Shown piece by piece: positions 30,719-45,703 of a stretch of 64,000 bases of DNA. This DNA comes from Acidobacteriota bacterium. Its GTDB lineage: Bacteria > Acidobacteriota > Terriglobia > Terriglobales > Acidobacteriaceae. The translations under genes were made by a program, and so were the position numbers. Position 1 is the stretch's first letter, and each line of letters begins with the position of its first letter. The stretch spans positions 1 to 64,000 of the forward strand of contig JAJXZT010000071.1 in the NCBI GenBank assembly GCA_021779935.1. The letters run 5' to 3'. The notes beneath the pieces were generated by a model. It made no database searches, was not told where the DNA came from, and saw nothing but the letters and a program-made list of their open reading frames with translations.

Positions 30719-30754
30719 GTGATTCTACTCACGACAATCTGTGACGTTCATCAC
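30719..30754 (-). promoter_or_regulatory. Tandem Crp/Fnr-type operators upstream of the radical SAM gene
   Basis: Two perfect GTGA-N6-TCAC palindromes: GTGATTCTACTCAC (30719-30732) and GTGACGTTCATCAC (30741-30754), starts exactly 22 bp apart. Centres are 93 and 115 bp before the start codon at 30632. Confidence 0.7.
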
Positions 30755-32597: not shown

Positions 32598-34628
32598 TCA
32601 TTCGGTCGCCGCGGAATCCTTATTTTTTTTCTCCTGCGGGGCGTCTACAATCTGCTCCGCCGGAGGTTCGTCTTCCATCACTACCGCACTGAGCGTCTCG
32701 TAATCGAGGGCGTGCTCTTCGCGATAGTGTTCAAGGCTCATCTTGCCGTCGAACCATGCCCAGTTCATCGGGTATGAGTCGGGGTCGAAGATGATCATGT
32801 AGAAGTGCCACACAATGATGGCCAGGGTGGCAAGAATGGCCTCGTACCAGTGAATGGTGGTGGCAACATCGACCCACCAGCGCGGTACACGATCTCCAAC
32901 GAAAACCTGGAACCACATCATGAAGCCGGTAGCGCCCATGACGAAGGTTCCCCAGACAAGCGCCCAGTACTCCATCTTCTCGGCGTAATTGAACCGCTTG
33001 AACTGAGGCTTGCGGTTACTGAAGCCGAGATAGTAGGCGAAGACATCCACCATATCGGTGGCATCCTTCGGCTCAGGGAGCATGTCACGCCACATCTTCC
33101 GGCCTTCCGCATAACGGATGACATAGAAAATATGGAACAGGCTGGTTGCGATCAGTATGGAACCCGCAATGCGGTGCACGATGCTGCGAACGGACTCGTT
33201 GATGAACACCATCGCGAGCCAGGAATTCGGATACTTCAGGGAGAATCCCGTAAGCACCAGAATAATGAAACTCACGAAGAGACTGAGGTGCTGAATCTGC
33301 TGCAGCTTCGTCATGCGGGTGACAATGCGCGGCCCGCCAGAAATGTGCGCGTGTCCGTGCAAACGGTCCACAAGTTTCTTCCGCAGGATGATCAGGTTGT
33401 GGAGCACCATGAAGCCGATCGTGCCCCAGATCATCAGCAGGTAGAAACGCCGGATGAAGGCAAGGATCTTGGCCTCCGCAGCCTGTGGCGGCTCATCCGA
33501 CAAGTGGATCTTGCCCCTGGTGAAGCTCTCGTTCGCGCCGGGATGGCACTGACCGCAAGTCTTTACCAGGTTGGCCTTGTTGATGGTGGAACGCGGATCG
33601 CTGGACGGCAGAATGTCATGGACGCCGTGGCAACTGGCGCAGTTGGCAACCTTGGTGGAACCCATCTCATGCGCAAGACCGTGATAGCTGTCCTGGTAGG
33701 AGGATAGGCGGTTCCCGGGAACGCCAAACTCTCGCGTAAGAGTCACGCCGGAGTGACATTGCCCGCAGACTTCGGTGGCCAGATTCTGGGCATTGACGGT
33801 TGCAGTCGGGTCCTGGGGTCTTTTAATGCTATGAATGCCGTGACAATCCGTACACACCGGAGCGTGCAGGTTTCCCCTGGCTACTGCCTGACCGTGAATG
33901 CTTTCTGAATACTGTGCCGCTTCAGACCCGTGGCACTTGCCACAAGTCTTGGGAACGTTGGTTTTGAAAATCGGCGACTGCGGATTGCCGGGGCCCATGA
34001 TGTCGTGAGCTCCGTGGCAGTCCGTGCAGACCGCGGCCTTGTCATTGCCTTCCGCGCTGAGCTTGCCGTGCACGCTCTGCTGGTAGTTGATGACTGGCGT
34101 GGTGGTCACGCCCGAAGTTTCCATGACGAACTTCTGGCCGTGACATGCGCCGCAGGTTTTTGGAATGTTAGCGTGGTTGACCTTGGAATTCGGATCGCTG
34201 GGCGGCAGAAGCTCGTGAATGTTGCCATGACAGCTTTCGCAAGTCGCGGCATTGGAATTCCCTGCCGCAATCGCTCGCGCATGAATACTCTTGTCGTAAG
34301 TCTTCTGCTCGTCAGCATGACACTGGGCGCAGGTAGGCTTGGAGACGTTAGCGTCGTGTGGAAGCGACTTGATGTCTTTGTGGCAGTCAACACAGTTAAA
34401 CATCTGCCCGTGCATGGAGGCCTTGAACTTATCCTCGTTCACCTGCAGGCTAACTTGTTTGCCATTGACGTCCATGGTCAACGACGGATCACTGTGACAG
34501 GCCAAGCAATCCGCATTGGTCAACTGCTGCGGTTGCCTGGCCTGCGCAAGCCCGGTAAGCATCATTACCAGGCAAATGATTAGATATCCTCCGGGACCTT
34601 TCCCCGGATTTCTACCTCGGGAGAACAT
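32598..34628 (-). CDS. Eleven-haem cytochrome c fused to a cytochrome b membrane domain
   Basis: 676 residues. A signal/anchor segment (about 14-31) leads to a periplasmic region with 11 C-x2-C-H motifs between about residues 41 and 375 (CLACH, CVDCH, CAQCH, CESCH, CGACH, CTDCH, CGKCH, CTDCH, CGQCH, CASCH, CGQCH). The C-terminal about 250 residues form a four-helix cytochrome b561-like domain with membrane histidines (LHNLI, QHLSLF, VHRIAG, SLFHIFY, TIHWYEA, VWHFYM), as in formate-dehydrogenase or thiosulfate-reductase gamma subunits. One polypeptide thus joins quinol oxidation/reduction to a haem wire. It ends in an acidic cytoplasmic tail (EDEPPAEQIVDAPQEKKNK). It follows the small cytochrome c gene by 33 bp. 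Confidence 0.93.
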   Translation of the reverse strand: MFSRGRNPGKGPGGYLIICLVMMLTGLAQARQPQQLTNADCLACHSDPSLTMDVNGKQVSLQVNEDKFKASMHGQMFNCVDCHKDIKSLPHDANVSKPTCAQCHADEQKTYDKSIHARAIAAGNSNAATCESCHGNIHELLPPSDPNSKVNHANIPKTCGACHGQKFVMETSGVTTTPVINYQQSVHGKLSAEGNDKAAVCTDCHGAHDIMGPGNPQSPIFKTNVPKTCGKCHGSEAAQYSESIHGQAVARGNLHAPVCTDCHGIHSIKRPQDPTATVNAQNLATEVCGQCHSGVTLTREFGVPGNRLSSYQDSYHGLAHEMGSTKVANCASCHGVHDILPSSDPRSTINKANLVKTCGQCHPGANESFTRGKIHLSDEPPQAAEAKILAFIRRFYLLMIWGTIGFMVLHNLIILRKKLVDRLHGHAHISGGPRIVTRMTKLQQIQHLSLFVSFIILVLTGFSLKYPNSWLAMVFINESVRSIVHRIAGSILIATSLFHIFYVIRYAEGRKMWRDMLPEPKDATDMVDVFAYYLGFSNRKPQFKRFNYAEKMEYWALVWGTFVMGATGFMMWFQVFVGDRVPRWWVDVATTIHWYEAILATLAIIVWHFYMIIFDPDSYPMNWAWFDGKMSLEHYREEHALDYETLSAVVMEDEPPAEQIVDAPQEKKNKDSAATE

Positions 34629-34661
34629 CGAGCACCTCGGCTGCGCTCAAAACAGTATTGG

Positions 34662-34961
34662 TTACTTCTTCAACGTGCGAATGAAGCTAACCGCAGCCTT
34701 GATCTCGTCGGCGCTCATCCTGCTGCCATAAGCCGGCATCTTTGCCTTGCCCTTGGTAACGATCTCGATCAACTGCGCGTCACTCTGCTTCTGAACCTCG
34801 GCGGAGCTAAGTGGCTTAATCCCCATGGCTGCGTTGACTTTGCTGCCGTCAGCACCGTGACACATGGCGCACTTGGCCTTGTAAACAGCCGCTCCATCGG
34901 CGGCCATCGCCGGAAGAGCAAGGGCTGCCATAGCGGCCAGAGCGATAACTGTCTTTTTCAT
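34662..34961 (-). CDS. Small periplasmic monohaem cytochrome c
   Basis: 99-residue class I cytochrome c. Signal peptide about 1-20 (ending LPAMAADG), haem site C-x2-C-H in YKAKCAMCHGADG, axial Met in AKMPAYG and a final helix AAVSFIRTLKK. It probably shuttles electrons in the periplasm. ATG at 34961 follows AAGGAAACC; the 23-codon upstream extension of the frame lacks signal character. It is followed after 33 bp by the 11-haem/cytochrome b gene. Three Crp/Fnr-type palindromes lie 145-230 bp upstream. Confidence 0.95.
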   Translation of the reverse strand: MKKTVIALAAMAALALPAMAADGAAVYKAKCAMCHGADGSKVNAAMGIKPLSSAEVQKQSDAQLIEIVTKGKAKMPAYGSRMSADEIKAAVSFIRTLKK

Positions 34962-35105
34962 CTTGGTTTCCTTCTCTCGTATGGTTTCCATCGCTGTAAC
35001 CGGAGGTGGATTCCGTGCGTTTTGACCCACTTACACAGAGTTCTTCACGCCGGAATCTCCGCAACGGTACATCTTGTTTTTCGCATCCGCATGCCACGTG
35101 CCGCA

Positions 35106-35141
35106 GTGAGAGCCCTCACCCCGGGAAGTGACTAGTGTCAC
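35106..35141 (-). promoter_or_regulatory. Tandem Crp/Fnr-type operators upstream of cytochrome c
   Basis: Two perfect palindromes: GTGAGAGCCCTCAC (35106-35119) and GTGACTAGTGTCAC (35128-35141), starts 22 bp apart. Centres are 152 and 174 bp before the cytochrome c ATG. Confidence 0.7.
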
Positions 35142-35178
35142 AGATAGTTAGGACTCATAGGCTGCGATACAGGATGTT

Positions 35179-35192
35179 GTGGCAAACGTCAC
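35179..35192 (-). promoter_or_regulatory. Third, degenerate Crp/Fnr-type palindrome
   Basis: GTGGCAAACGTCAC differs from GTGA-N6-TCAC by one base and lies 51 bp from the nearer perfect site of the tandem pair. It could be an auxiliary site. Confidence 0.35.
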
Positions 35193-35295
35193 ATGAACGA
35201 GGGTTAAAGCGAACAGAACCACCACAATTTCTATGCCCCAAAAGTGCCCGCGAAAATGAGAGCTCGTGAAAAACGTATCCGGCAGAAGGACACAA

Positions 35296-35357
35296 TGAAA
35301 CGGGGCGACTCGAAAGCCGCCCCGTCCGGAGGGCCAACGGCACTGAAGCGCCGTTGG
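35296..35357 (-). terminator. Double stem-loop after the porin gene
   Basis: Two consecutive hairpins follow the porin stop on the minus strand: CCAACGGC / GCCGTTGG (35334-35357) and ACGGGGCG / CGCCCCGT (35300-35325), the second followed by TTTCATT. They should end the decahaem-porin transcript. Confidence 0.65.
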
Positions 35358-35366
35358 GAGGAGAAG

Positions 35367-37916
35367 TTAGAACGCGTACTTCAACGACAGAGTGCCCGTG
35401 TTGGCATGGAAGTCGCGAGGTGCGGCGATCACGCCCGGGTTACTCTTCTCGTTGTAGCCGTAATAGTTGTATCCGCCCTTGAACGTAACGTTCTTGCTCA
35501 AGGCCAGTTCCAACGTACCGAAGGGCTTGTGCCAGTTGATTCCCAACGGGCCAAGCGGCTGGAACGGGTTCGGACCGGCGCCATAGCCGACGATCGGGCC
35601 ACCGAGACTACCGGTGTAAACCACGTTGCCATTCGCATCGACTGGCACGTTGAACGGCGCAAGCGTGTCGCCGCGCAGCCAGTTATTCTGACCGGAATCG
35701 CTGGTGAGGTCGTAACCGAGCTTCAGGGTTACGCGCTTCACCGGATTCAGCGTCAGGTAGGCATAGGCCGAGTTGGTGTTCTGCTGGTAAAGCAGGACCA
35801 GCGGAACCTCGCCGGCCACGGCGCCGGTGCAACGAGCGATCTGTCCGCCCTGCGGAACAAGACCCGTTGCGCCACCGCTTACCGGCAGACAAGCTCCACT
35901 ATTGGAGTAGATGTCCTGGTACGACCAGCCAAAGTTGAAGTCAACCATCTTGGTCGGGTTGAGCTGGAAATCCAGGCTGTAGTTGCGGGAATGGTCCTGA
36001 TGACGAGGCGACACGATGCTTGTCGGGAACACCTCGTTGAAAATGCTATTGCGATTCTCGAGCGCGAAAATCGAACCCGAGACCGTGAACCATTCGCTCG
36101 CACGATACGAGCTGCGCAGCTTGAATCTCTGCTGGTGGCCCGGAGCGATGTTGGTGAATGGTGTATCCACGTACATCGTTTCCAAGTCAGCATTGATCCG
36201 CCAGCCGTCGAACGGACGGGCATTGAAGCCGACCAGGATGGTCTGCTCCGTCTGGTCTTCCGTGGCGACGATGTCGGTAACGGTCGTGAAGGTTCCGAGA
36301 GTACGCGAAGCGGCGCTGGCGACATTTGCGCCATAGTACGTCGCCGTGTCGGTGCTCAGGTCCTTGTAACCGGCAGTGCGGGTGCCAAACCGGCCGCCCA
36401 CGTGCATTCCGAACCTGCGATTGGGGTCCCACTGCAACAGGATCGTATCGTTGATGGCCTTGTCGCTGTGGAACTGAACCCAGGTGTAGCGGTCAAAATC
36501 AGGACCGCTGCTGCTGGTGTGGTACGGCGTTCCGCTGGTCGGGAGCCCCGCGCAGGTCGAAGCGCCATTGGGCGCGCCGATCGGCGTCAAGATGGTGGCT
36601 CCGCTGGCGACATTGGGATAGCACGCAACTTCGGTGCTGTTCCAGACGCCGGGAATCCGCCAGTTCAGGTAATGGAACTGGTTGCTGATCGACCAGTTGT
36701 CGTTGATGCGATACGTCAGACCGATGTCCGCACTCGCCGAAACCCGCTTGATCTTCGCCGGGCCGTTGAACTGGAAGGCCCGTTCGTAGGTACGGGTGAT
36801 AAACGCGTTCGCCTGTTCGTTGTACGTGTTCATCTTGTTTTCGGCGGAGCTGTAGCTGCCCGTGGCGGTGATGTCGAGCTTCTTGAAGTAGCTCGACGTG
36901 AAGGACAACTGCGACGTCGGGAACGTTGTGTGCTGCGGACCGAAACGATTGTAGCCAAAATACAGGTTGCAACCGCTCGCCTTGACGACGTTGCCCACAC
37001 CGGCGGTCGGAGTGATCATCGGCGGAGTGTTCGAGCAAGGCTGTCCGTAATACGTGTTATAGATCGCACCGATATCGACCGGTTGGTATCCGGCGGCTCC
37101 GGCGTTGATCATATAGCTGAGATTCTGGTCAGACCACGACGTGTCGTTCTTGTTGTAGTCGAAGAACTGATCGAAGCTCAATTGCGTGCGAGGTGCAATC
37201 CTCAGGTCCACGCCGATGCGGTACTGGTCCTGACGGTCACGGAAGTTCTGATACAGCGAGAGTTCCGTGCCCTCATGGAACGTCGTGTAGGACGGGCCTT
37301 CATTGACGTTGCGCGAGTAGCCGAGACGAAGACGAACCGGCGACTGCGGAGCAATCGTCAGGTTGAAATCGCCCATGTTCCGGCGCGTGTCCATGGCATG
37401 CGGCGATTTATTCCACTGTACGTATCCGCCCGGAGTATTGAACGGATTGGCCAGCAGGTTGTAATCGAAATAGTTCTGGTCGCGACGATAATTACCGACA
37501 AAATCAAACCAGCGGTTCTTGGAGGCGCGAATTAACGTGCCCGCTTCCGGATCGCCGCCGTAGCCGTAGCTGCGGATGTAAAGGTCGTCAATCAAATTGC
37601 CGGTGTGGGTCATCGAGCGCATGCTGAACGACTGCTCGAGAAGCCGGGGACCGTTGTGCAGGTTGACGAACGTGTTGTACATCGAACTGTTGCCCTCGAT
37701 GTCCGTGATCCGGCCGCCGAATTCAATCGACTGCTGAATCGTGTAGCCGCCGGCCACCGTGCCGGTTTCTTCCTTTGCCTGCTGGGCAGACAAAAGACAC
37801 GGAACAAGGAGCAAGCAGAGTGCAAGAATGACGATGCTGCGAGTCATCGCGCCACTCCCGTTGTGCAGCGTCCTCAAGGTCGAGGATCGCCGTGGAGAAA
37901 CAGTGATCAATTCCAT
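35367..37916 (-). CDS. Large outer-membrane beta-barrel, MtrB/PioB-like candidate
   Basis: 849 residues. After a signal peptide (core IVILALCLLLVPCLL, cleavage near SAQQ) the sequence is a long alternation of polar/aromatic strands such as RLRLGYSRNV and LGLTYRIND-type pairs, ending in a terminal strand LSLKYAF with C-terminal Phe, the outer-membrane barrel signal. About 26-30 strands would fit. Several cysteine pairs sit in likely outer loops. Two starts have good Shine-Dalgarno sequences: 37916 (GGAGGGGACACC, used here) and 37847 (GGGAG), the latter giving a shorter signal peptide. It begins 13 bp after the decahaem cytochrome gene, the arrangement of MtrA-MtrB conduits, in which the barrel sheathes the decahaem wire. 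The MtrB/PioB assignment is inferred from size and pairing. Confidence 0.85.
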   Translation of the reverse strand: MELITVSPRRSSTLRTLHNGSGAMTRSIVILALCLLLVPCLLSAQQAKEETGTVAGGYTIQQSIEFGGRITDIEGNSSMYNTFVNLHNGPRLLEQSFSMRSMTHTGNLIDDLYIRSYGYGGDPEAGTLIRASKNRWFDFVGNYRRDQNYFDYNLLANPFNTPGGYVQWNKSPHAMDTRRNMGDFNLTIAPQSPVRLRLGYSRNVNEGPSYTTFHEGTELSLYQNFRDRQDQYRIGVDLRIAPRTQLSFDQFFDYNKNDTSWSDQNLSYMINAGAAGYQPVDIGAIYNTYYGQPCSNTPPMITPTAGVGNVVKASGCNLYFGYNRFGPQHTTFPTSQLSFTSSYFKKLDITATGSYSSAENKMNTYNEQANAFITRTYERAFQFNGPAKIKRVSASADIGLTYRINDNWSISNQFHYLNWRIPGVWNSTEVACYPNVASGATILTPIGAPNGASTCAGLPTSGTPYHTSSSGPDFDRYTWVQFHSDKAINDTILLQWDPNRRFGMHVGGRFGTRTAGYKDLSTDTATYYGANVASAASRTLGTFTTVTDIVATEDQTEQTILVGFNARPFDGWRINADLETMYVDTPFTNIAPGHQQRFKLRSSYRASEWFTVSGSIFALENRNSIFNEVFPTSIVSPRHQDHSRNYSLDFQLNPTKMVDFNFGWSYQDIYSNSGACLPVSGGATGLVPQGGQIARCTGAVAGEVPLVLLYQQNTNSAYAYLTLNPVKRVTLKLGYDLTSDSGQNNWLRGDTLAPFNVPVDANGNVVYTGSLGGPIVGYGAGPNPFQPLGPLGINWHKPFGTLELALSKNVTFKGGYNYYGYNEKSNPGVIAAPRDFHANTGTLSLKYAF

Positions 37917-37929
37917 GGTGTCCCCTCCC

Positions 37930-38877
37930 TTACTTGAAGAGAATGTTGCTGGTGTTAGAACCGTGAATTGCCACGTGACAAAGCGTGCAAGCCTGGCTCT
38001 TCGTGTTCTGCGGATGCGGACCGGAGGGTAAAACGTCTCCGTGGCACTCCAGACACAAGGAGTTGACGCGCGCGCGAGTCAGTAGACGCGGATTGGTCGA
38101 GCCGTGCGGCGTGTGGCAGGCTTGACAGCCTTCCGACTTCACCGGGTAGTGCTCGAAGACGAACGGACCGCGTTTGTCAGCGTGACACTTGAAGCAAACG
38201 GCATCCTGAGCGCTCGCGCTGCGCAGCTGCTCCGGCATGTTGGTACCGTGGGCGCTGTGGCAGTCGTTGCAGCTTATGAGGCCTTCGTTCACGCGATGAC
38301 GGAACGGCTTGTTGAAGTCGGCCTTGATCTCCTGGTGACACGAATAGCAGAGATCCGGCGATTTCTGCACGAGCAGTTGTTCTTCGACCTTCGGCTTGTG
38401 AACCGAGTGACAGGTCGTACAGGTAACGCCAGCGCGTGCGTGGACCGAACGGTTGAACGTCATGTGTTCGGCATTCTTTTCGTGACACGTCATACAGCGG
38501 GCGGTGATTTCCTCGGGCTTCACATCCTTGAACGTGAAGATTTTGGTCTTGTCTCCGCCTCCGTTGACGTGGGCTGCTCCGGGACCATGACACGACTCGC
38601 ATCCATGCCATTGTTCGCCGCGGCCAGTATTAGAAAAAATGCGGTAATGTGGGGAGGCCTCGGTGTTCTTAAATTGGTCCTCGTGGCACCCCTTGCAGGT
38701 CTCGGAGCCAACGTACTGCGATGCATCCGCAGCCGCTGTCGCCGAGGGTTGATTCGTAGTCTGTGCCGCATCCTTCTTGTCCTGCCTGGCGGCCATCAAC
38801 TGGACCGCTCCCAGCAGGAACAGGAAACATGCGACGAACCAGACCGAATACCGCCTGAGAATTCGTGCTTCCTTCAT
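37930..38877 (-). CDS. DmsE/MtrA-type decahaem cytochrome c
   Basis: 315 residues with an N-terminal signal (about 11-30) and ten C-x2-C-H motifs: CKGCH, CESCH, CMTCH, CTTCH, CYSCH, CNDCH, CFKCH, CQACH, CLECH and CTLCH. Length, haem number and spacing match the DmsE/MtrA/PioA family, which carries electrons through the outer membrane inside a barrel partner. The barrel gene follows at 13 bp. No outer-surface cytochrome (MtrC-like) or DMSO-reductase-like enzyme is encoded in the window, so the terminal acceptor is unknown. A tandem Crp/Fnr-type operator pair lies about 112-148 bp upstream. Confidence 0.94.
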   Translation of the reverse strand: MKEARILRRYSVWFVACFLFLLGAVQLMAARQDKKDAAQTTNQPSATAAADASQYVGSETCKGCHEDQFKNTEASPHYRIFSNTGRGEQWHGCESCHGPGAAHVNGGGDKTKIFTFKDVKPEEITARCMTCHEKNAEHMTFNRSVHARAGVTCTTCHSVHKPKVEEQLLVQKSPDLCYSCHQEIKADFNKPFRHRVNEGLISCNDCHSAHGTNMPEQLRSASAQDAVCFKCHADKRGPFVFEHYPVKSEGCQACHTPHGSTNPRLLTRARVNSLCLECHGDVLPSGPHPQNTKSQACTLCHVAIHGSNTSNILFK

Positions 38878-38988: not shown

Positions 38989-39025
38989 GTGACGCCCGTC
39001 ACATTTCAGACGTGACCGCGCTCAT
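38989..39025 (-). promoter_or_regulatory. Tandem Crp/Fnr-type operators upstream of the decahaem gene
   Basis: A perfect palindrome GTGACGCCCGTCAC (38989-39002) and a one-mismatch copy GTGACCGCGCTCAT (39012-39025), starts 23 bp apart. Centres are 118 and 141 bp before the ATG at 38877. Confidence 0.6.
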
Positions 39026-39140: not shown

Positions 39141-39173
39141 TAAAAGGCCGCCAGAAGGGCGATCTGGCGGCCT
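39141..39173 (-). terminator. Terminator of the HTH-less crp gene
   Basis: Stem AGGCCGCCAG / CTGGCGGCCT (10 bp, loop 9) followed on the minus strand by TTTTATG, 50 bp after the stop at 39224. Confidence 0.85.
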
Positions 39174-39223
39174 CATGAATTGATATTTGTAAATGCAACA
39201 CCTATTGCGGCCCGAAACGCATA

Positions 39224-39727
39224 TCAAGAAGCAACGCGAGGACGGATAAGACGGGGACGGCGTGTCCGCGTCAGTCCGATGGAACGCACCCGCTCATACG
39301 CCGCGTGAAGGTCCTGGCTGAGCATCTGTACGACCATCATGCAGGCGTCACGATGATCGCGAAGGAACTTGAGAAGATCCTTACGCCGCACGAATACAAC
39401 CTGGGATTGATCCAGCAACTCCGCCGTGACTTCATACGGTGTCCCGGACATGCTGGCTCCGAGTCCAAGCACTTCTCCCGGACCGGCAATGCGCAACATC
39501 AACCGCTTGCCGTTTTCGGAGCAGATGGATAGTTTGGCCCGGCCGTCGCATAGAACGTAGATCCCCCGCGAGGGACGCCCCTCGGCGAATAACACGGCGC
39601 CCTTCTCGCAGGTGACCTGCGACTTGACCGCGTCGAAGGCCTGCAGCGCTTCCGTTGGCATGTCACAAAAGATGCGGTCGGGACGGAACGTGCAGTTGAA
39701 GCAACTCGGCTGGCTAGAGCTTTCCAT
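39224..39727 (-). CDS. Crp/Fnr-like sensor protein lacking the HTH domain
   Basis: 167 residues, clearly paralogous to the regulator at 39982-40701 through the sensor domain and dimer helix (GAVLFAEG, RGIYVLC.GR.KLSICS, PGEVLGLGASMSG.PYE.TAE). It keeps the N-terminal Cys set C9-x2-C12-x8-C21 proposed to hold an Fe-S cluster, but ends right after the dimerisation helix with an Arg-rich tail (GLTRTRRPRLIRPRVAS). No winged helix is encoded downstream in any frame before the terminator at 39173. A perfect plus a near-perfect Crp/Fnr-type palindrome lie 39-75 bp before its ATG. It may heterodimerise with and blunt the complete paralogue. Confidence 0.88.
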   Translation of the reverse strand: MESSSQPSCFNCTFRPDRIFCDMPTEALQAFDAVKSQVTCEKGAVLFAEGRPSRGIYVLCDGRAKLSICSENGKRLMLRIAGPGEVLGLGASMSGTPYEVTAELLDQSQVVFVRRKDLLKFLRDHRDACMMVVQMLSQDLHAAYERVRSIGLTRTRRPRLIRPRVAS

Positions 39728-39765
39728 GACATCATCCGTTTAACGTGGTTGCGAATTCCGTCGCA

Positions 39766-39801
39766 GTGACTACAGTCACTCTTCGCCGTGAGGGATGCCA
39801 C
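39766..39801 (-). promoter_or_regulatory. Tandem Crp/Fnr-type operators upstream of the HTH-less crp gene
   Basis: GTGACTACAGTCAC (39766-39779, perfect) and GTGAGGGATGCCAC (39788-39801, one mismatch), starts exactly 22 bp apart. The nearer site is only 39 bp from the start codon, closer than at the other genes, which would also fit repression. Confidence 0.6.
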
Positions 39802-39981: not shown

Positions 39982-40701
39982 CTACACGGTTGCGAGTGCC
40001 TTAAGCGCTGCCTTATTGCGAATGACGAGCGTCGATCCCTTGGACTGCACGATCTGACGTTTCTTCAATTCGGCAAACAATCGGGTGACCGTCTCGCGCG
40101 AAGTTCCAATCATCTGCGCTATCTCCTCGTGCGTGAGGGCAAGCTTCAGACGGGGTTCCGCCTTCGCGGATTCACCGTTGCGATTGCTCCACTCGATGAG
40201 AAGCTTTGCAAGTTTTTCCGCCGCCGAATGCGAAAGTCCCAGGGAGCGGATCTCGCGGCAGGCAGTGTTGTACTTTTCGCTCAACTGCTCGGCCACGCGC
40301 AAACAAGCGTCGCTGTGGTCGCGAAGGAAGCGCAGAAAGTCCTCGCGCTTGACGAAATTGATCTGGCAAGGATCGATGGTTTCGGCAGTGAGTTCATAGG
40401 GCTTGCCGGAAACGCTCGCACTGAGTCCGAGAACTTCACCCGCCTCCGCAATTTTCAGGATTAACGTCTTGCCGTCGGTCGAACAGATCGACAGTTTGAC
40501 GCGTCCCTTGCAGAGCACGAAAATTCCGCGCGGCGCTTGCCCTTCTACAAATAGAACTGCACCCTTGGGATAAGCTGTAGCGTATTTTATTTGTTCGAAT
40601 GATTGAAGCGCCGCGGTAGGAAGATCGCAAAAAATATGATCGGCGCGCATTTTGCAGGCCAGGCAGCTTTCGATAATGTCGAGCCCGTATGGTGAGAGCA
40701 C
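39982..40701 (-). CDS. Crp/Fnr family regulator with N-terminal cysteine cluster
   Basis: 239 residues from a GTG at 40701 preceded by AAGAGGGGG; the longer open frame upstream is Cys/Arg-rich and not family-like. N-terminal C13-x2-C16-x8-C25 recalls the FNR Fe-S ligands (different spacing), followed by the beta-roll (GAVLFVEGQAPRGIFVLCKGRVKL), dimer helix and winged helix (about 175-225). The recognition helix is GTSRETVTRLFAEL: R-E-T-V-T-R matches CRP's R-E-T-V-G-R, which reads GTGA, rather than FNR's V-E-T-I-S-R. Likely an oxygen- or NO-responsive activator of the neighbouring respiratory genes; that link is inference. Confidence 0.92.
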   Translation of the reverse strand: MLSPYGLDIIESCLACKMRADHIFCDLPTAALQSFEQIKYATAYPKGAVLFVEGQAPRGIFVLCKGRVKLSICSTDGKTLILKIAEAGEVLGLSASVSGKPYELTAETIDPCQINFVKREDFLRFLRDHSDACLRVAEQLSEKYNTACREIRSLGLSHSAAEKLAKLLIEWSNRNGESAKAEPRLKLALTHEEIAQMIGTSRETVTRLFAELKKRQIVQSKGSTLVIRNKAALKALATV

Positions 40702-41482: not shown

Positions 41483-43723
41483 ATGGCAACGCCTTCTGTC
41501 GAAAAACCCACCTACGAAACGATTCGCACTCTTCCCGGAGACGACGTCCGGCAGATTCTCTGGCGGTACTCCGATCGATATGACCTTCAGATGCTGGTGC
41601 AATCGGTGCGCTCGGTGGCGCGCGGACTGGTCGCACACCTGGTTGCTGAAGGTGCGCGCAACACTCACGAGTGGACGGATCGCAAGAACGAACTGCTCAA
41701 GGCCTACGACGAAAGCGGAGTTTCCGCCTCGTTCCTGGAACCGGAGGAAGGCGGCTTCATCGCCGGTCCGAAGAACATGGTGCTGGCACTGGTGGCATAT
41801 GAGCTGGCATGGGTCGACGGTGGCGCTGCGACAGGCGCACTCGCCGGCTGCCTTGCGCTGTCGCCGATTCATGAGCGCGGCACGGTTGAGCAGAAAAAAC
41901 ACTACATGAGCCTGTGCGCTCCGCCGCAACCGGGCGAGGACCGCAAACCGTGGCGCGGATCATTCTGCCTGACGGAACCAATCCCCTACGTTGGAGTCGA
42001 CACCGGGATGCTCAACGGCAAACTGCGCGTGGCGGAGTGGAAAGACGGCGAGGAGCCGATGCTTCAGGTCGACAAGCGCGGACGGTTCATCACCAACATG
42101 GGTTTCGCCAACTTTGTCACGGCGGCGGTTCAGTCGGTCGACGAGCGCATTAAGGGCTCGTGCATCGTCATCCTGGAAGAGAACGATCCCGGCATATTCG
42201 ATCGCGGCACGCCGACGAAGAAAATGGTGCACCAACTCTCGTCGACAAACGACCCTATCTTCAGCCTGAAGGTTCCGGCGAGCCGCATCGTCGGCGGATA
42301 CACAGTGAAGGACGGCGTCATTGTCCCCAACTTCGATCACAGCGAGGTGATTGAGGCAGTCTTCAAGCGGACGCGCGTGACGGTCGCGCTCATGACTTCG
42401 GCCAAGCTGCTGTCCGCCATCGAGCCCATCATTCGCTACCAGCGCGGACGATTCCGCGGCGCGGAGCAGGCAACTCCGGGCACGATCCGTTACGACCTTG
42501 GATTGCAGCAGCGCGAAGACGCACTGCATCGCCTGGTCGACATCTGGGCGATGGGTGAAGCTTCGGCAGCACTCGGATTTGCCGCCGCGCGGTGTTTCGA
42601 TGTGCTCGACCCACTGGAGAAAGAGAAGAACACGATCCTGGAAGAAAAAGGTATCCGGGGCGGCAAGAGCGAGATGAAGTTCTTCAAGGGAGTCCAGAAA
42701 GACGCCATCGATTTCCTGAACCTTTGCGCCAAGCCGGAAGAAGCGCGCGCCAACAGCACACGGTTCGTGGAATTGCATGAAAACAAGCTGGTCCAGTACG
42801 CGATTCTCGACGCCGTCGCGGGCGTGCTCTGCCCCGCGTCGAAGCTGTGGAATACCGGCAAGGGCAACGTGCTGATGCGCGAGGCGGTCAGCCTGATGGG
42901 AGGCTACGGAATCACGGAAGATTGTCCAGGGTTCCTCGGCCAGAAGTGGATGGATTCGCAACTGGAAGCCACTTACGAAGGTCCGGAAGCGGTGCAGCGC
43001 CGCAACCTGACAGTCACCATGCAGAACGAGCTTTTCCTTAAGCAGTTCGGCAACTGGATCGTCGAGATGCGTCACATTGCCGCGCAGAAGCCCGGAACAG
43101 GCGCATGCGCGCTGGGCACGGCGATGCAACTGTGGCTGTGGACGTACAAGCATCTGCAACACGCCAAGGATCCGCAGGGCAACAAGCTCTATCAAAGCGC
43201 CCGCCAGGGAGTCACGTTCCCGATGGCCGACGCGCTGTGCTGGCTCCTGGCCAGCCGTCAGCAGATTCTCGACCTCATCGAACTCGAGCATCGCGGGCCG
43301 GAAAACCCGGTGGTTGCGGAAGGCCTCGCGGGAACCGTGCAGTTCCTGACGGATCTCTGCCACGTACAGACGGCGCGCTCGGTGGGCGAAGTCGGACGCA
43401 TCTGTGCCGAACTTGTGCACGGATTCCGCCGCCATCCGGCGTGGGACGAAGCGGGATACAAGGGCTGCTACGCGCAGGACGAGATGGATTTGATGGAGGC
43501 GTTCGTTCCCGGCCTTCCGGCATGCGCCACCGACGTTGTCGGTCTCGATGGATGCCATCCGGACAAGGCCGGTCCGTGCGCCAACTGCGAGGGACTTGAA
43601 CCGTTCCAGCGTCTGCGTGCGCGTATGGACAACTGCCTGACTGGAGCAATGCTGGCCAAGGATCGGGCGGCGGAGGCATTGACGAAAGTCATGATTCCGG
43701 AAGCGCTGGACTATCCGCAGTAA
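41483..43723 (+). CDS. Large acyl-CoA dehydrogenase family protein
   Basis: 746-residue flavoprotein. Residues about 60-540 follow the acyl-CoA dehydrogenase plan: mixed helical N-terminal domain, FCLTEPIPYVG (flavin-binding strand region), and C-terminal helices with LMGGYGITEDCPGFLGQKWMD and LEATYEGPEAVQRRNLT. The about 200-residue C-terminal extension ends with several cysteines (LPACATDVVGLDGCHPD, GPCANCEGLEPF), an arrangement that could bind metal or an Fe-S cluster. Substrate unknown. It heads an operon with ETF-quinone oxidoreductase, EtfB and EtfA, so electrons from substrate oxidation are expected to reach the quinone pool. Confidence 0.88.
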   Translation: MATPSVEKPTYETIRTLPGDDVRQILWRYSDRYDLQMLVQSVRSVARGLVAHLVAEGARNTHEWTDRKNELLKAYDESGVSASFLEPEEGGFIAGPKNMVLALVAYELAWVDGGAATGALAGCLALSPIHERGTVEQKKHYMSLCAPPQPGEDRKPWRGSFCLTEPIPYVGVDTGMLNGKLRVAEWKDGEEPMLQVDKRGRFITNMGFANFVTAAVQSVDERIKGSCIVILEENDPGIFDRGTPTKKMVHQLSSTNDPIFSLKVPASRIVGGYTVKDGVIVPNFDHSEVIEAVFKRTRVTVALMTSAKLLSAIEPIIRYQRGRFRGAEQATPGTIRYDLGLQQREDALHRLVDIWAMGEASAALGFAAARCFDVLDPLEKEKNTILEEKGIRGGKSEMKFFKGVQKDAIDFLNLCAKPEEARANSTRFVELHENKLVQYAILDAVAGVLCPASKLWNTGKGNVLMREAVSLMGGYGITEDCPGFLGQKWMDSQLEATYEGPEAVQRRNLTVTMQNELFLKQFGNWIVEMRHIAAQKPGTGACALGTAMQLWLWTYKHLQHAKDPQGNKLYQSARQGVTFPMADALCWLLASRQQILDLIELEHRGPENPVVAEGLAGTVQFLTDLCHVQTARSVGEVGRICAELVHGFRRHPAWDEAGYKGCYAQDEMDLMEAFVPGLPACATDVVGLDGCHPDKAGPCANCEGLEPFQRLRARMDNCLTGAMLAKDRAAEALTKVMIPEALDYPQ

Positions 43724-43843
43724 CCGGCAGAGGGGTGTAAGCAACTGGCGATACGAGAAGCGAGGCGGTCGGACGCTACGTTCGGCGCATACCGCACGAG
43801 CAGGGGCATACGCGCGTTTCACAGGATTGAGGACGAGCTTTAG

Positions 43844-45703
43844 ATGGCTGACGAAGAGCAACAATTTGAGCAGGAACGGCAGAGCCTGGAAGTAGACATC
43901 GCATGCGTAGGCTTTGGCCCGGCGATGGGCGGATTTCTGACCACTCTCTCGCAGAAACTTGCCGCGGATTCGGATCACCCCCTGGAGTCGGCGGTGATGA
44001 CGGGCATGCCGCTGCAGGTTATCTGTTATGAACGTGCGGATGATCCCGGATTTGGCGTCTCCGGCGTGGTGACTCGCGCGCGCGGGATTCGCTCGACGCT
44101 TCCCGACCTCGATCCATCGCAGATTCCAATGGCAACGCCGGTGTCGCAGGAGAAAGTTCTCTACCTGCTCGATCCGGTTGGCGCCAGCCGGCGATCCCTT
44201 GGACTGCGCACCGCCGACGCAGCCATCAAAGCTTTTCGATGGATGCTGCCGGTGGATCACGATGCACTCGAACTTCCCTACACGCCTGACTTTCTCAGGA
44301 AGCATGACGGACTGGTGATGTCGATTGGGCAGTTCAACCAGTGGGTAGCCAGCCAGTTGATGACGAGCGGCCTCGTGCAGATTTGGCCCGCGATGCCGGT
44401 ACAACAGGCGTTGATTGAGAATGACGCCGTTGTGGGCGTGCGGATGGTGGACCAGGGTGTTGATCGTCAGGGCAAACCTGACGCCGGTTATATGCCCGGC
44501 ATGGACATCAAGGCCGCGCTCACGGTAGTTGGCGACGGGCCCGTTAGCCCAGTGGGACGCCAGCTCGACGAACGTTTCGGGATGCCTCCGGGACACGAGA
44601 AACACGATTGGGCCGTCGGCATGAAGGCCGTCATCGAATTGCCTGAACACGTCGATCTCAAGCCCGGCACGGTCTTTCATAGCTTCGGATATCCCGAGCC
44701 GGAAATATTCGGATTCTTCTATGTTCATCCGGAGCGTGTCGCCACTGTTGGAATTTTCGTGCCGTCGTGGTTCGACAGCCCGGTGCGTACGGCTTACCGG
44801 TACCTTCAGCATTTCATGATGCACCCGTACTTCTGGCGCTACCTCAAGGGAGGAACGCTTAAATCCTGGGGAGCGAAGTCGCTACAGGAGTCCGGCAAAC
44901 GCGGAGAGCCTTTCCTTGCCGGCAACGGATACGCGCGCATAGGCGAAGGTTCAGGCAGCACAAACGTTCTCACCGGTTCCGGCGTGGACGAGGCCTGGAC
45001 CACGGGCACGCAACTGGCGGAGTCTGTCGTTGAATTGCTGCGCGCCGGACAGAAGTTTACGCGCGAGAACCTGGAGCGCACGTATGTCCAACGCCGCCGC
45101 CGTAGCTGGGTCGAGAAGGAAGGCCGCGTCGCCGAACATGCGCGCGACGGCTTCCAGCGTGGCGTCATTTCCGGACTGATTGGCATGGGACTTGCCGGAA
45201 TGACCGGCGGCCGCGTGTCGCTGCATCTGGAAACCAAAGCTCCGCACGAGCGTCTGCGCTCGCCGGAACAATTTTTCGCATCGCGGCTGTCGGCACAGGA
45301 ACTCGCCAATATCAGGCGCCACTGCACACAGACGAACACGCCGCTGCACGATGCGGTGATGGAAGCCTGCGGCTGGCCGGCAATTCCCTTCGACGGCAAA
45401 CTGCTCATCACGCATCAGGACGCGCTGCTGATGGGCGGCAAAGTACAAGCTCCCGCCGGATACGCCGATCACGTCAGCTTCCGCGATGCTCACGTGTGCG
45501 AACTCTGCGGCGCGCGGACGTGCATCGAGATCTGCTCCGGACAGGCGATCACTCCCGGTGAAAACGGAGTACCGGCATTTGATCGTGAAAAGTGCGTCCA
45601 CTGCGGCGCCTGCCTATGGAACTGCTCGCAAGCAGATGCCAACGGTGTGACGAATCTGGAATTCAGGGCCGGCGCGGGCGGATTGCACTCGGCCCAGAAC
45701 TGA
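43844..45703 (+). CDS. ETF-quinone oxidoreductase (FixC/ETF-QO-like) with 4Fe-4S domain
   Basis: 619 residues. N-terminal FAD-binding fold (VDIACVGFGPAMGGFLTTL, about 17-36), a middle FAD/quinone domain (VVGDGPVSPVGRQLDE; GNGYARIGEGSGSTNVLTGSGVDEAW), and a C-terminal ferredoxin-like domain with cysteines in HVCELCGARTCIEICSG and KCVHCGACLWNCSQ. This is the layout of ETF-ubiquinone oxidoreductase and FixC/FixX fused. It would pass electrons from EtfAB to membrane quinone. Located between the acyl-CoA dehydrogenase and etfB. Confidence 0.9.
   Translation: MADEEQQFEQERQSLEVDIACVGFGPAMGGFLTTLSQKLAADSDHPLESAVMTGMPLQVICYERADDPGFGVSGVVTRARGIRSTLPDLDPSQIPMATPVSQEKVLYLLDPVGASRRSLGLRTADAAIKAFRWMLPVDHDALELPYTPDFLRKHDGLVMSIGQFNQWVASQLMTSGLVQIWPAMPVQQALIENDAVVGVRMVDQGVDRQGKPDAGYMPGMDIKAALTVVGDGPVSPVGRQLDERFGMPPGHEKHDWAVGMKAVIELPEHVDLKPGTVFHSFGYPEPEIFGFFYVHPERVATVGIFVPSWFDSPVRTAYRYLQHFMMHPYFWRYLKGGTLKSWGAKSLQESGKRGEPFLAGNGYARIGEGSGSTNVLTGSGVDEAWTTGTQLAESVVELLRAGQKFTRENLERTYVQRRRRSWVEKEGRVAEHARDGFQRGVISGLIGMGLAGMTGGRVSLHLETKAPHERLRSPEQFFASRLSAQELANIRRHCTQTNTPLHDAVMEACGWPAIPFDGKLLITHQDALLMGGKVQAPAGYADHVSFRDAHVCELCGARTCIEICSGQAITPGENGVPAFDREKCVHCGACLWNCSQADANGVTNLEFRAGAGGLHSAQN

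What the first reader, a model, noticed from the sequence alone, without database searches (positions are those of the whole stretch)
39224..39727. Crp/Fnr paralogue that keeps the cysteine sensor but has lost the DNA-binding domain
It matches its neighbour through the beta-roll and dimer helix, retains C-x2-C-x8-C, then stops with an Arg-rich tail followed by a good terminator. Its promoter has its own operator pair close to the start. A DNA-binding-dead partner could form inactive heterodimers and give negative feedback on the regulon.
Basis: partly seen in the sequence, partly recalled or inferred. Interest (0 to 1): 0.7.

Follow-up and report, generated by a model that had tools for sequence, protein, structure and literature searches.

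The report
Conserved DNA-binding-less partner of a regulator
Soil Acidobacteriota carry, next to a respiration-type gene switch, a shortened copy of it that lacks the DNA-binding part but has been kept by selection in many genera under a promoter that looks built for the full-length switch to turn on, so it is probably a built-in brake or modulator of that switch.

Summary
The ORF (39224-39727, minus, 167 aa) is a Crp/Fnr paralogue that ends at the hinge. It is not decay: the same HTH-less gene (HL) was found in at least 36 of 150 family genomes (26 of 79 genera). 34 rows form one clade (100/98), dN/dS is well below 1, and 31 of 35 copies lie directly downstream of the same full-length regulator (FL).

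New here: the HL promoter keeps a fixed geometry. An operator GTGA(C/T)N4(G/A)TCAC sits one class II distance upstream of a -10-like box, and the start codon falls where transcription should begin (17 of 33 exactly; 32 of 33 within -1 to +4). HL therefore looks like a leaderless gene activated by FL or a sister paralogue. An Arg-x-Arg tail is nearly invariant.

The three-cysteine motif is dispensable (lost in 5 of 35). The dimer helix is the part least like FL, which weakens, but does not exclude, the simple heterodimer model.

Best reading: an activator-induced anti-activator or modulator, like TrlR or CerN in the LuxR family. My searches found no such case for Crp/Fnr. Nothing has been tested biochemically.

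The parts
39224..39727 (-). HL: HTH-less Crp/Fnr paralogue, 167 aa (Cys motif 8-24, beta-roll about 25-123, C-helix 126-152, Arg-rich tail 153-167)
   Evidence: predicted model mean pLDDT 79.8, helix 126-155; top structural matches A. fischeri FNR residues 17-168 and GlxR, both Z 18.8
39982..40701 (-). FL: full-length Crp/Fnr regulator, GTG start, 239 aa, with HTH and recognition helix SRETVTR
   Evidence: a relative of 75% identity or more in 34 of 150 family genomes
39766..39779 (-). proximal operator GTGACTGTAGTCAC, about class II position relative to the HL start
   Evidence: 10 of 10 match; 33 of 35 HL genes score 9 or 10 (32 at the promoter position, G011 at -111), against 0.5% of mononucleotide shuffles
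39788..39801 (-). distal operator GTGGCATCCCTCAC, 22 bp upstream of the proximal one
   Evidence: 8 of 10; offset 22 is the best offset in 23 of 34 genomes, mean score 7.03 against 1.4-3.5 at other offsets; median per-genome shuffle p 0.04
39738..39743 (-). -10-like hexamer TTAAAC at the class II distance (+30 to +35 from the operator centre)
   Evidence: 3 of 6 here; over 34 genomes mean 3.15 of 6 at this offset, next best of 32 offsets 2.38
39144..39174 (-). terminator-like hairpin after HL
   Evidence: 12 pairs, 8 G-C, T-rich tail; 3 such sites in the region against 2.4 in shuffles; a similar structure found after 10 of 35 HL genes by a simple scan
38989..39002 (-). palindromic operator GTGACGGGCGTCAC between HL and the decahaem cytochrome gene
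   Evidence: 10 of 10 match, centred 228 bp after the HL stop; no shuffle control for this position
37930..38877 (-). DmsE-family decahaem c-type cytochrome gene downstream of the pair
   Evidence: NCBIfam TIGR03508, 258.7 bits against a cut-off of 192.2; a homologue in 10 of 20 wide loci around the pair

Best explanation
HL is a dedicated protein modulator, most likely an anti-activator, of the Crp/Fnr regulator(s) it derives from. FL (or its sister PAR) in its active state binds the -41.5 operator as a class II activator and switches on a leaderless HL mRNA. HL then folds as beta-roll plus dimer helix without an HTH and lowers regulator activity by protein contact, most simply by taking one place in a dimer with FL or PAR so that the pair lacks one recognition helix. 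The result is a self-limiting, pulse-like or dampened response of a respiratory regulon. Shown by comparison: retention without HTH in one clade, purifying selection, promoter geometry, conserved Arg tail. Inferred: a single loss of the HTH, activation by FL/PAR, leaderless start, sign of the feedback. Not shown: any heterodimer or any expression.
For: At least 36 of 150 family genomes, 26 of 79 genera, carry HL (the match list is capped). 34 HL rows form one clade, 100/98. dN/dS 0.017-0.198 in the 14 of 15 pairs with finite dS. 31 of 35 lie 78-336 bp downstream of FL. Operator score 9 or 10 of 10 in 33 of 35; in 32 of these it is centred 37-56 bp before the nominal start. The first in-frame ATG after the -10 position is at the predicted TSS in 17 of 33 and within -1 to +4 in 32 of 33; Shine-Dalgarno-like motifs in 2 of 33 HL (shuffle expectation 10%) against 13 of 32 FL. 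Control: of 434 ORF starts in 20 wide loci, 19 have such an operator at -52 to -34 and 14 of these are HL. FL has the Crp-type recognition helix SRETVTR (its link to GTGA half-sites is recalled). HTH-less paralogue antagonists are known in other families (TrlR: passages of PMC3907764; CerN, FleT: passages of PMC11655674). Full-length Fnr paralogues interact through the dimer helix in two-hybrid assays (passages of PMC5934665).
Against: The dimer helix is where HL and FL differ most: 0.35 identity against 0.46-0.72 elsewhere (30 pairs), with fixed or nearly fixed differences at 133, 139, 140, 141, 144 and 146. That is what insulated homodimers would show; obligate heterodimer adaptation would look similar. 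It is also the most diverged segment between FL and PAR (0.46 against 0.57-0.82, 13 genomes), so the objection is moderate. HL and PAR are somewhat more alike there (0.434 against 0.363, 13 genomes), so FL may not be the partner. Eight of 34 promoters have fewer than 3 of 6 -10 matches in exact register. Three FL carriers (G006, G027, G146) show no HL beside FL in the stretches seen. Four HL carriers have no adjacent FL: G011 and G014 have a PAR-like copy elsewhere; G067 and G117 are 74% and 67% complete genomes. No expression or binding data exist here.
Confidence: 0.45

Rival explanations
1. HL forms its own homodimer and works as an effector or redox buffer: it keeps the ligand pocket and competes with FL for the same small signal, giving negative feedback without any heterodimer.
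For: The segment corresponding to the Crp phosphate-binding cassette is the most FL-like part (0.72 identity) and the dimer helix the least (0.35). Invariant G84, G88, L89, A91, E99 and E103 lie there (31 rows).
Against: The effector is unknown; residues at the Crp R82/S83 positions are not Arg/Ser (read by eye). The pocket segment is also the best conserved part between FL and PAR (0.82), so its conservation is not special to HL. This reading does not explain the nearly invariant Arg-x-Arg tail (Arg156 in 34 of 34).
Confidence: 0.2
2. HL is a homodimeric sensor-adaptor with a new target: the basic tail after the hinge binds another protein, RNA or DNA backbone, and the gene is simply a member of the FL regulon.
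For: Tail Arg content 28.8% against 9.0% in the body; Arg154 in 32 of 34, Arg156 in 34 of 34. The dimer helix has its own conserved signature, H141 34 of 34 and Y or F144 34 of 34.
Against: Tight linkage to FL (31 of 35) and the operator-driven promoter suggest a link to FL itself. The tail beyond about residue 160 is variable.
Confidence: 0.25
3. HL is a pseudogene or recent truncation without function.
For: It has lost a domain and, in some lineages, the cysteines.
Against: One clade across 26 genera, dN/dS well below 1, conserved promoter geometry and tail.
Confidence: 0.02

Closest known systems
TrlR of Agrobacterium (truncated TraR, LuxR family)
   Same: Paralogue of a dimeric regulator without its DNA-binding domain; reported to block the full-length protein by forming inactive dimers (passages, PMC3907764).
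   Different: LuxR not Crp/Fnr family; on the Ti plasmid and mannopine-inducible, 88% identical to TraR (passage, PMC11655674). HL lies on large contigs (133,698 bp here; a single 5.65-Mb contig in G031), is shared by 26 genera, is 54% identical to FL here and has a regulator-type operator.
CerN (with CerM) and FleT (with FleQ) of Cereibacter sphaeroides
   Same: Homologues without HTH or DNA-binding domain that modulate a full-length partner (abstract and discussion passages, PMC11655674). CerN and CerM are only 31% identical, so divergent pairs can still act.
   Different: LuxR and FleQ families. No class II leaderless promoter is mentioned in the passages seen.
Fnr1-Fnr3 of Herbaspirillum seropedicae
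   Same: Crp/Fnr paralogues whose interaction through the dimerisation helix was detected in two-hybrid assays (passages, PMC5934665).
   Different: Both partners bind DNA (each has its own promoter group) and they co-activate.
E. coli / A. fischeri FNR
   Same: Among the top structural matches of the HL model (A. fischeri FNR residues 17-168, Z 18.8, rmsd 2.6, 17% identity; GlxR ties); N-terminal C-x2-C pair in a similar place by alignment.
   Different: Third Cys at x8, not x5; no Cys aligned with FNR C122 (the FL beta-roll Cys aligns three columns earlier; read by eye); no HTH in HL; Ala at the FNR D154 position in both FL and HL.

Membership tests
Crp/Fnr superfamily transcription factor | N-terminal cNMP_binding-type beta-roll | tested here: met
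   PF00027, 63.6 bits against a cut-off of 27.5
Crp/Fnr superfamily transcription factor | Long C-helix for dimerisation | tested here: met
   predicted helix 126-155; aligns with Crp and FNR C-helices; dimerisation itself not tested
Crp/Fnr superfamily transcription factor | C-terminal HTH_Crp DNA-binding domain | tested here: not met
   no HTH family hit; no remnant seen downstream in the window; tblastn of the FL HTH against 400 nt downstream of 35 HL genes gave one weak antisense alignment (25 aa, E 0.035)
FNR-type [4Fe-4S] oxygen sensor | Cys set C-x2-C-x5-C plus C122 | tested here: not met
   HL spacing is x8; no Cys at the C122 column; whether another ligand set binds a cluster is unknown
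cAMP-binding Crp | Arg82-Ser83 of the phosphate-binding cassette | tested here: not met
   the alignment puts Y98 and E99 there (read by eye)
TrlR-like DNA-binding-less inhibitor (functional class) | Paralogue of a dimeric regulator lacking the DNA-binding domain | tested here: met
TrlR-like DNA-binding-less inhibitor (functional class) | Forms inactive heterodimers and inhibits the full-length protein | not testable with these tools
   no complex prediction or assay available
Class II Crp-dependent promoter | Operator centred 41.5 bp upstream of the TSS with a -10 box in register | tested here: inconclusive
   operator to -10 spacing is enriched over 34 genomes, 26 of 34 with 3 or more of 6 in exact register; the TSS has not been mapped

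The most novel reading that the evidence does not exclude
A Crp/Fnr activator and a built-in HTH-less partner form a conserved two-gene feedback device. FL or PAR class II-activates a leaderless HL gene, and the mixed dimer (one HTH plus HL's Arg-x-Arg hinge tail) is not merely dead but a distinct DNA- or polymerase-binding species. It might act on asymmetric sites such as the distal operator, whose HL-proximal TCAC half is kept in 33 of 34 genomes while the other half begins GTG in only 19 of 34 (read by eye).
Probability: 0.15. Interest if true: 0.82.

Novelty: new variant of a known kind. Interest (0 to 1): 0.68.

Why it matters
Crp/Fnr proteins are among the best studied bacterial regulators, and my searches showed none with a conserved DNA-binding-less partner. 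If HL brakes FL, a soil lineage limits its respiratory regulon with a protein decoy made by the regulator itself. The fixed operator / -10 / ATG arrangement also gives a directly testable prediction of class II activation of a leaderless gene in Acidobacteriota. A relative that can be cultivated would allow a test.

Tried and rejected
Decay, frameshift or sequencing error: rejected. The one broken relative, G095, contains an ambiguous stretch (X); it was left out of the tree, dN/dS, pair identities and start-codon counts, and kept in the 35-row Cys and operator counts and the 34-row -10 and site-pair counts.

'FL has the FNR C122 ligand and HL lost it' was my first idea (note). The alignment with E. 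coli FNR and CRP fetched by accession puts the FL Cys three columns from C122, so I dropped the equivalence; only the FL/HL difference stands, and the more distant full-length copies of G013 and G011 also lack that Cys.

Charge-swap salt bridges across an FL:HL coiled coil: considered from positions 139 and 146, but by my heptad assignment these are g positions whose partners are 144 and 151, so no clear prediction.

Co-evolution of HL and FL helices: not attempted; FL is nearly invariant there.

Operator neighbours: of 41 pattern matches in the genome (5 for the backward control) six pairs are one palindromic place read on both strands, so 35 places. 30 matches (24 places) became loci and were examined. 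I chose 10 neighbouring ORFs, mechanically delimited and some picked because they looked familiar, for Pfam; 8 had a family, 2 none.

HL outside the family: in the phylum sample (247 genomes, E at most 1e-35, at most 14 candidates scored per genome) short frames were listed only in the own family; more divergent ones would be missed. The order sample (249 genomes) has a capped match list and was not used for counts. The first genome-contig search with one sequence found no relative; with the alignment it gave 41 loci: L058-L091 and L098 (35) hold HL-type frames, L092-L097 only full-length ones.

Literature: searches (listings with start of abstracts) and passages of five papers showed no HTH-less Crp/Fnr partner. 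PMC12531629 and PMC9603854 were only searched for terms. The library is open-access only, so absence is weak.

Full report
WHAT IS THERE. On the minus strand lie a full-length Crp/Fnr-type regulator (FL, 39982-40701, GTG start, 239 aa) and, 254 bp downstream of the FL stop, a 167-aa paralogue (HL, 39224-39727). HL is 54% identical to FL over 155 aa and contains only the cNMP_binding domain, whereas FL also has HTH_Crp_2 and Crp. No other frame downstream continues the protein. AlphaFold gives a beta-roll and a long helix 126-155 (mean pLDDT 79.8; residues 1-16 and 155-160 under 50). The top structural matches, tied, are A. fischeri FNR (Z 18.8, rmsd 2.6, 151 residues, 17% identity) and cAMP-bound GlxR (Z 18.8, rmsd 2.5, 147 residues). 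On the alignment with E. coli CRP and FNR, the homologous part of HL stops at the hinge between C-helix and HTH domain.

IT IS NOT DECAY. A search of 150 genomes of the family, with follow-up by frame, gave 35 HL copies and a more divergent one in G013 (35% identity): at least 36 of 150 genomes and 26 of 79 genera (the match list is capped). In 31 of the 35, FL lies immediately upstream on the same strand, 78-336 bp away. Seen from FL: 34 of 150 genomes have an FL of 75% identity or more, and 31 of these have HL beside it; G006, G027 and G146 do not in the stretches seen. A tree of 34 HL, 32 FL and 7 other full-length rows puts all HL on one side of a branch with 100/98 support; the root was set at the midpoint only. 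So the HTH was most simply lost once and the short form inherited. dN/dS (Nei-Gojobori) is 0.017-0.198 for HL in 14 of 15 chosen pairs (one had undefined dS), and the same range in the seven pairs with pS under 0.5; the others are near saturation. FL is stricter, 0.006-0.067 in 13 pairs. Relatives in the named genome collection are MAGs labelled Acidobacteriaceae, Acidobacteriales, Terriglobales, Terriglobia, Acidobacteria or Acidobacteriota, with isolate labels such as palsa, bog, fen and groundwater; one is labelled Blastocatellia.

WHAT SELECTION KEEPS. Cx2Cx8C is present in 30 of 35 HL and 32 of 32 FL. It is lost in G003, G011, G014, G074 and G119, and the G013 copy lacks it too. A beta-roll Cys present in 32 of 32 FL and 7 of 7 other full-length tree rows is found in only 2 of 34 HL, one of them the earliest branch, G073; two more distant full-length copies, of G013 and G011, also lack it. 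I first took it for the fourth FNR ligand; alignment with FNR and CRP places it three columns from C122, so that is unresolved. The pocket segment is the most FL-like part of HL (0.72), the dimer helix the least (0.35; 30 pairs). The same order holds between FL and the third paralogue PAR (0.82 and 0.46, 13 genomes), so fast change of the helix is not special to HL. In the helix HL has V133, D139, L140, H141, Y144 and R146 (each in 29 to 34 of 34) against FL A, K, Y, N, C and E (each 32 of 32); PAR (65% to FL) has yet another set. Both HL and FL have Ala where E. coli FNR has D154; in FNR the D154A change lets the protein dimerise without its cluster (passage in PMC5934665), so dimerisation here may not depend on a cluster (inference). 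After G151, HL has a tail of median 14.5 residues, 28.8% Arg against 9.0% in the body, with Arg156 in 34 of 34 and Arg154 in 32 of 34.

THE PROMOTER. Between FL and HL lies GTGA(C/T)N4(G/A)TCAC. 33 of 35 HL genes score 9 or 10 of 10 (mean of all 35, 9.3; mononucleotide shuffles 6.4; 0.5% of shuffles reach 9); G010 and G054 score 8. The best match of G011 lies at -111, so G011 was left out of the later geometry counts; the other 34 are centred 37-56 bp before the nominal start. Aligned on the operator centre, 34 genomes show a TATNA-like hexamer at +30 to +35, the spacing of a class II Crp promoter (mean 3.15 matches of 6; next best of 32 offsets 2.38; 26 of 34 have 3 or more, 8 have fewer; that -41.5 is the class II position is recalled). 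The first in-frame ATG after that box is at the predicted TSS in 17 of 33, and within -1 to +4 in 32 of 33 (G011 and G095 left out); the window itself is at +4. Shine-Dalgarno-like motifs precede 2 of 33 HL, about the shuffle level of 10%, and 13 of 32 FL starts. As a control, 434 ORF starts in the 20 wide loci contain 19 with such an operator at -52 to -34, and 14 of these are HL; FL itself has one there in 3 of 32. The G013 copy, though 35% identical and without the cysteine motif, keeps the same spacing to its ATG (read by eye). A second operator lies exactly 22 bp upstream: offset 22 is the best in 23 of 34 genomes, with mean 7.03 of 10 against 1.4-3.5 elsewhere (median per-genome shuffle p 0.04); its HL-proximal half ends TCAC in 33 of 34, its other half begins GTG in 19 of 34 (halves read by eye). 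FL and PAR both carry SRETVTR, the Crp-type recognition sequence, so either could be the activator.

THE REGULON. In the window's genome the pattern GTGAYNNNNRTCACNG is matched 41 times (35 places, six of them read on both strands) against 5 for the reversed control. Neighbours of the sites include cytochrome bd subunit I, NADH dehydrogenase 20-kDa and 30-kDa subunits, a universal stress protein, a radical SAM/SPASM protein and a second cytochrome bd-like protein (8 of the 10 ORFs that I chose had a Pfam family). A 10-of-10 site lies in front of the DmsE-family decahaem cytochrome next to HL. A respiratory, Fnr-like regulon is therefore likely (inference).

HOW IT PROBABLY WORKS. Active FL or PAR turns HL on; HL accumulates and modulates FL or PAR. 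A protein that has lost its HTH, kept its beta-roll and dimer helix, sits beside its parent and is driven by a parent-type operator is most simply a self-made brake. The straightforward form is a mixed dimer with one HTH. Precedents outside the family are TrlR, CerN and FleT, and within the family the full-length Fnr1-Fnr3 interaction. The divergence of the dimer helix is a real objection: it may mean that HL pairs with itself, with PAR, or in a specialised way with FL. Effector competition and a new target of the Arg tail remain rivals. I put about 0.45 on the anti-activator reading, and regard the activator-driven leaderless promoter as the best supported single inference.

NOVELTY. DNA-binding-less paralogue partners are known, so the kind is known; for Crp/Fnr I found none in searches of an open-access library. 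Hence a new variant of a known kind.

Noticed in passing
L139 3496-3997 (G013:C46): A highly divergent HTH-less copy (35% identity, no Cx2Cx8C) still sits behind a full-length copy and keeps the operator and the spacing to its ATG.
   Followed up: partly
G000:C20:47540-48250 (L145): A second full-length paralogue (PAR, 65% to FL). 22 of 60 sampled genomes have a match at E at most 1e-85, FL hits included. A GTGA operator lies about 220 bp downstream of it (C20:48468).
   Followed up: partly
window 32598-38877: Cluster of multihaem cytochromes: a DmsE-family decahaem protein, an 849-aa protein without Pfam family that may be an outer-membrane barrel partner (my guess), and a 676-aa protein with sub-threshold cytochrome b-type and multihaem matches. 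Possible extracellular electron transfer conduit linked to the regulator pair.
   Followed up: partly
window 30739-30754 and 35128-35143: Further operators of the same type, one near a radical SAM/SPASM gene and one near a small cytochrome c-like gene.
   Followed up: partly
window 41483-45703: Acyl-CoA dehydrogenase-like ORF followed by a FixC-like flavoprotein with a ferredoxin-like end, on the other strand from the regulator pair (sub-threshold family matches).
   Followed up: no
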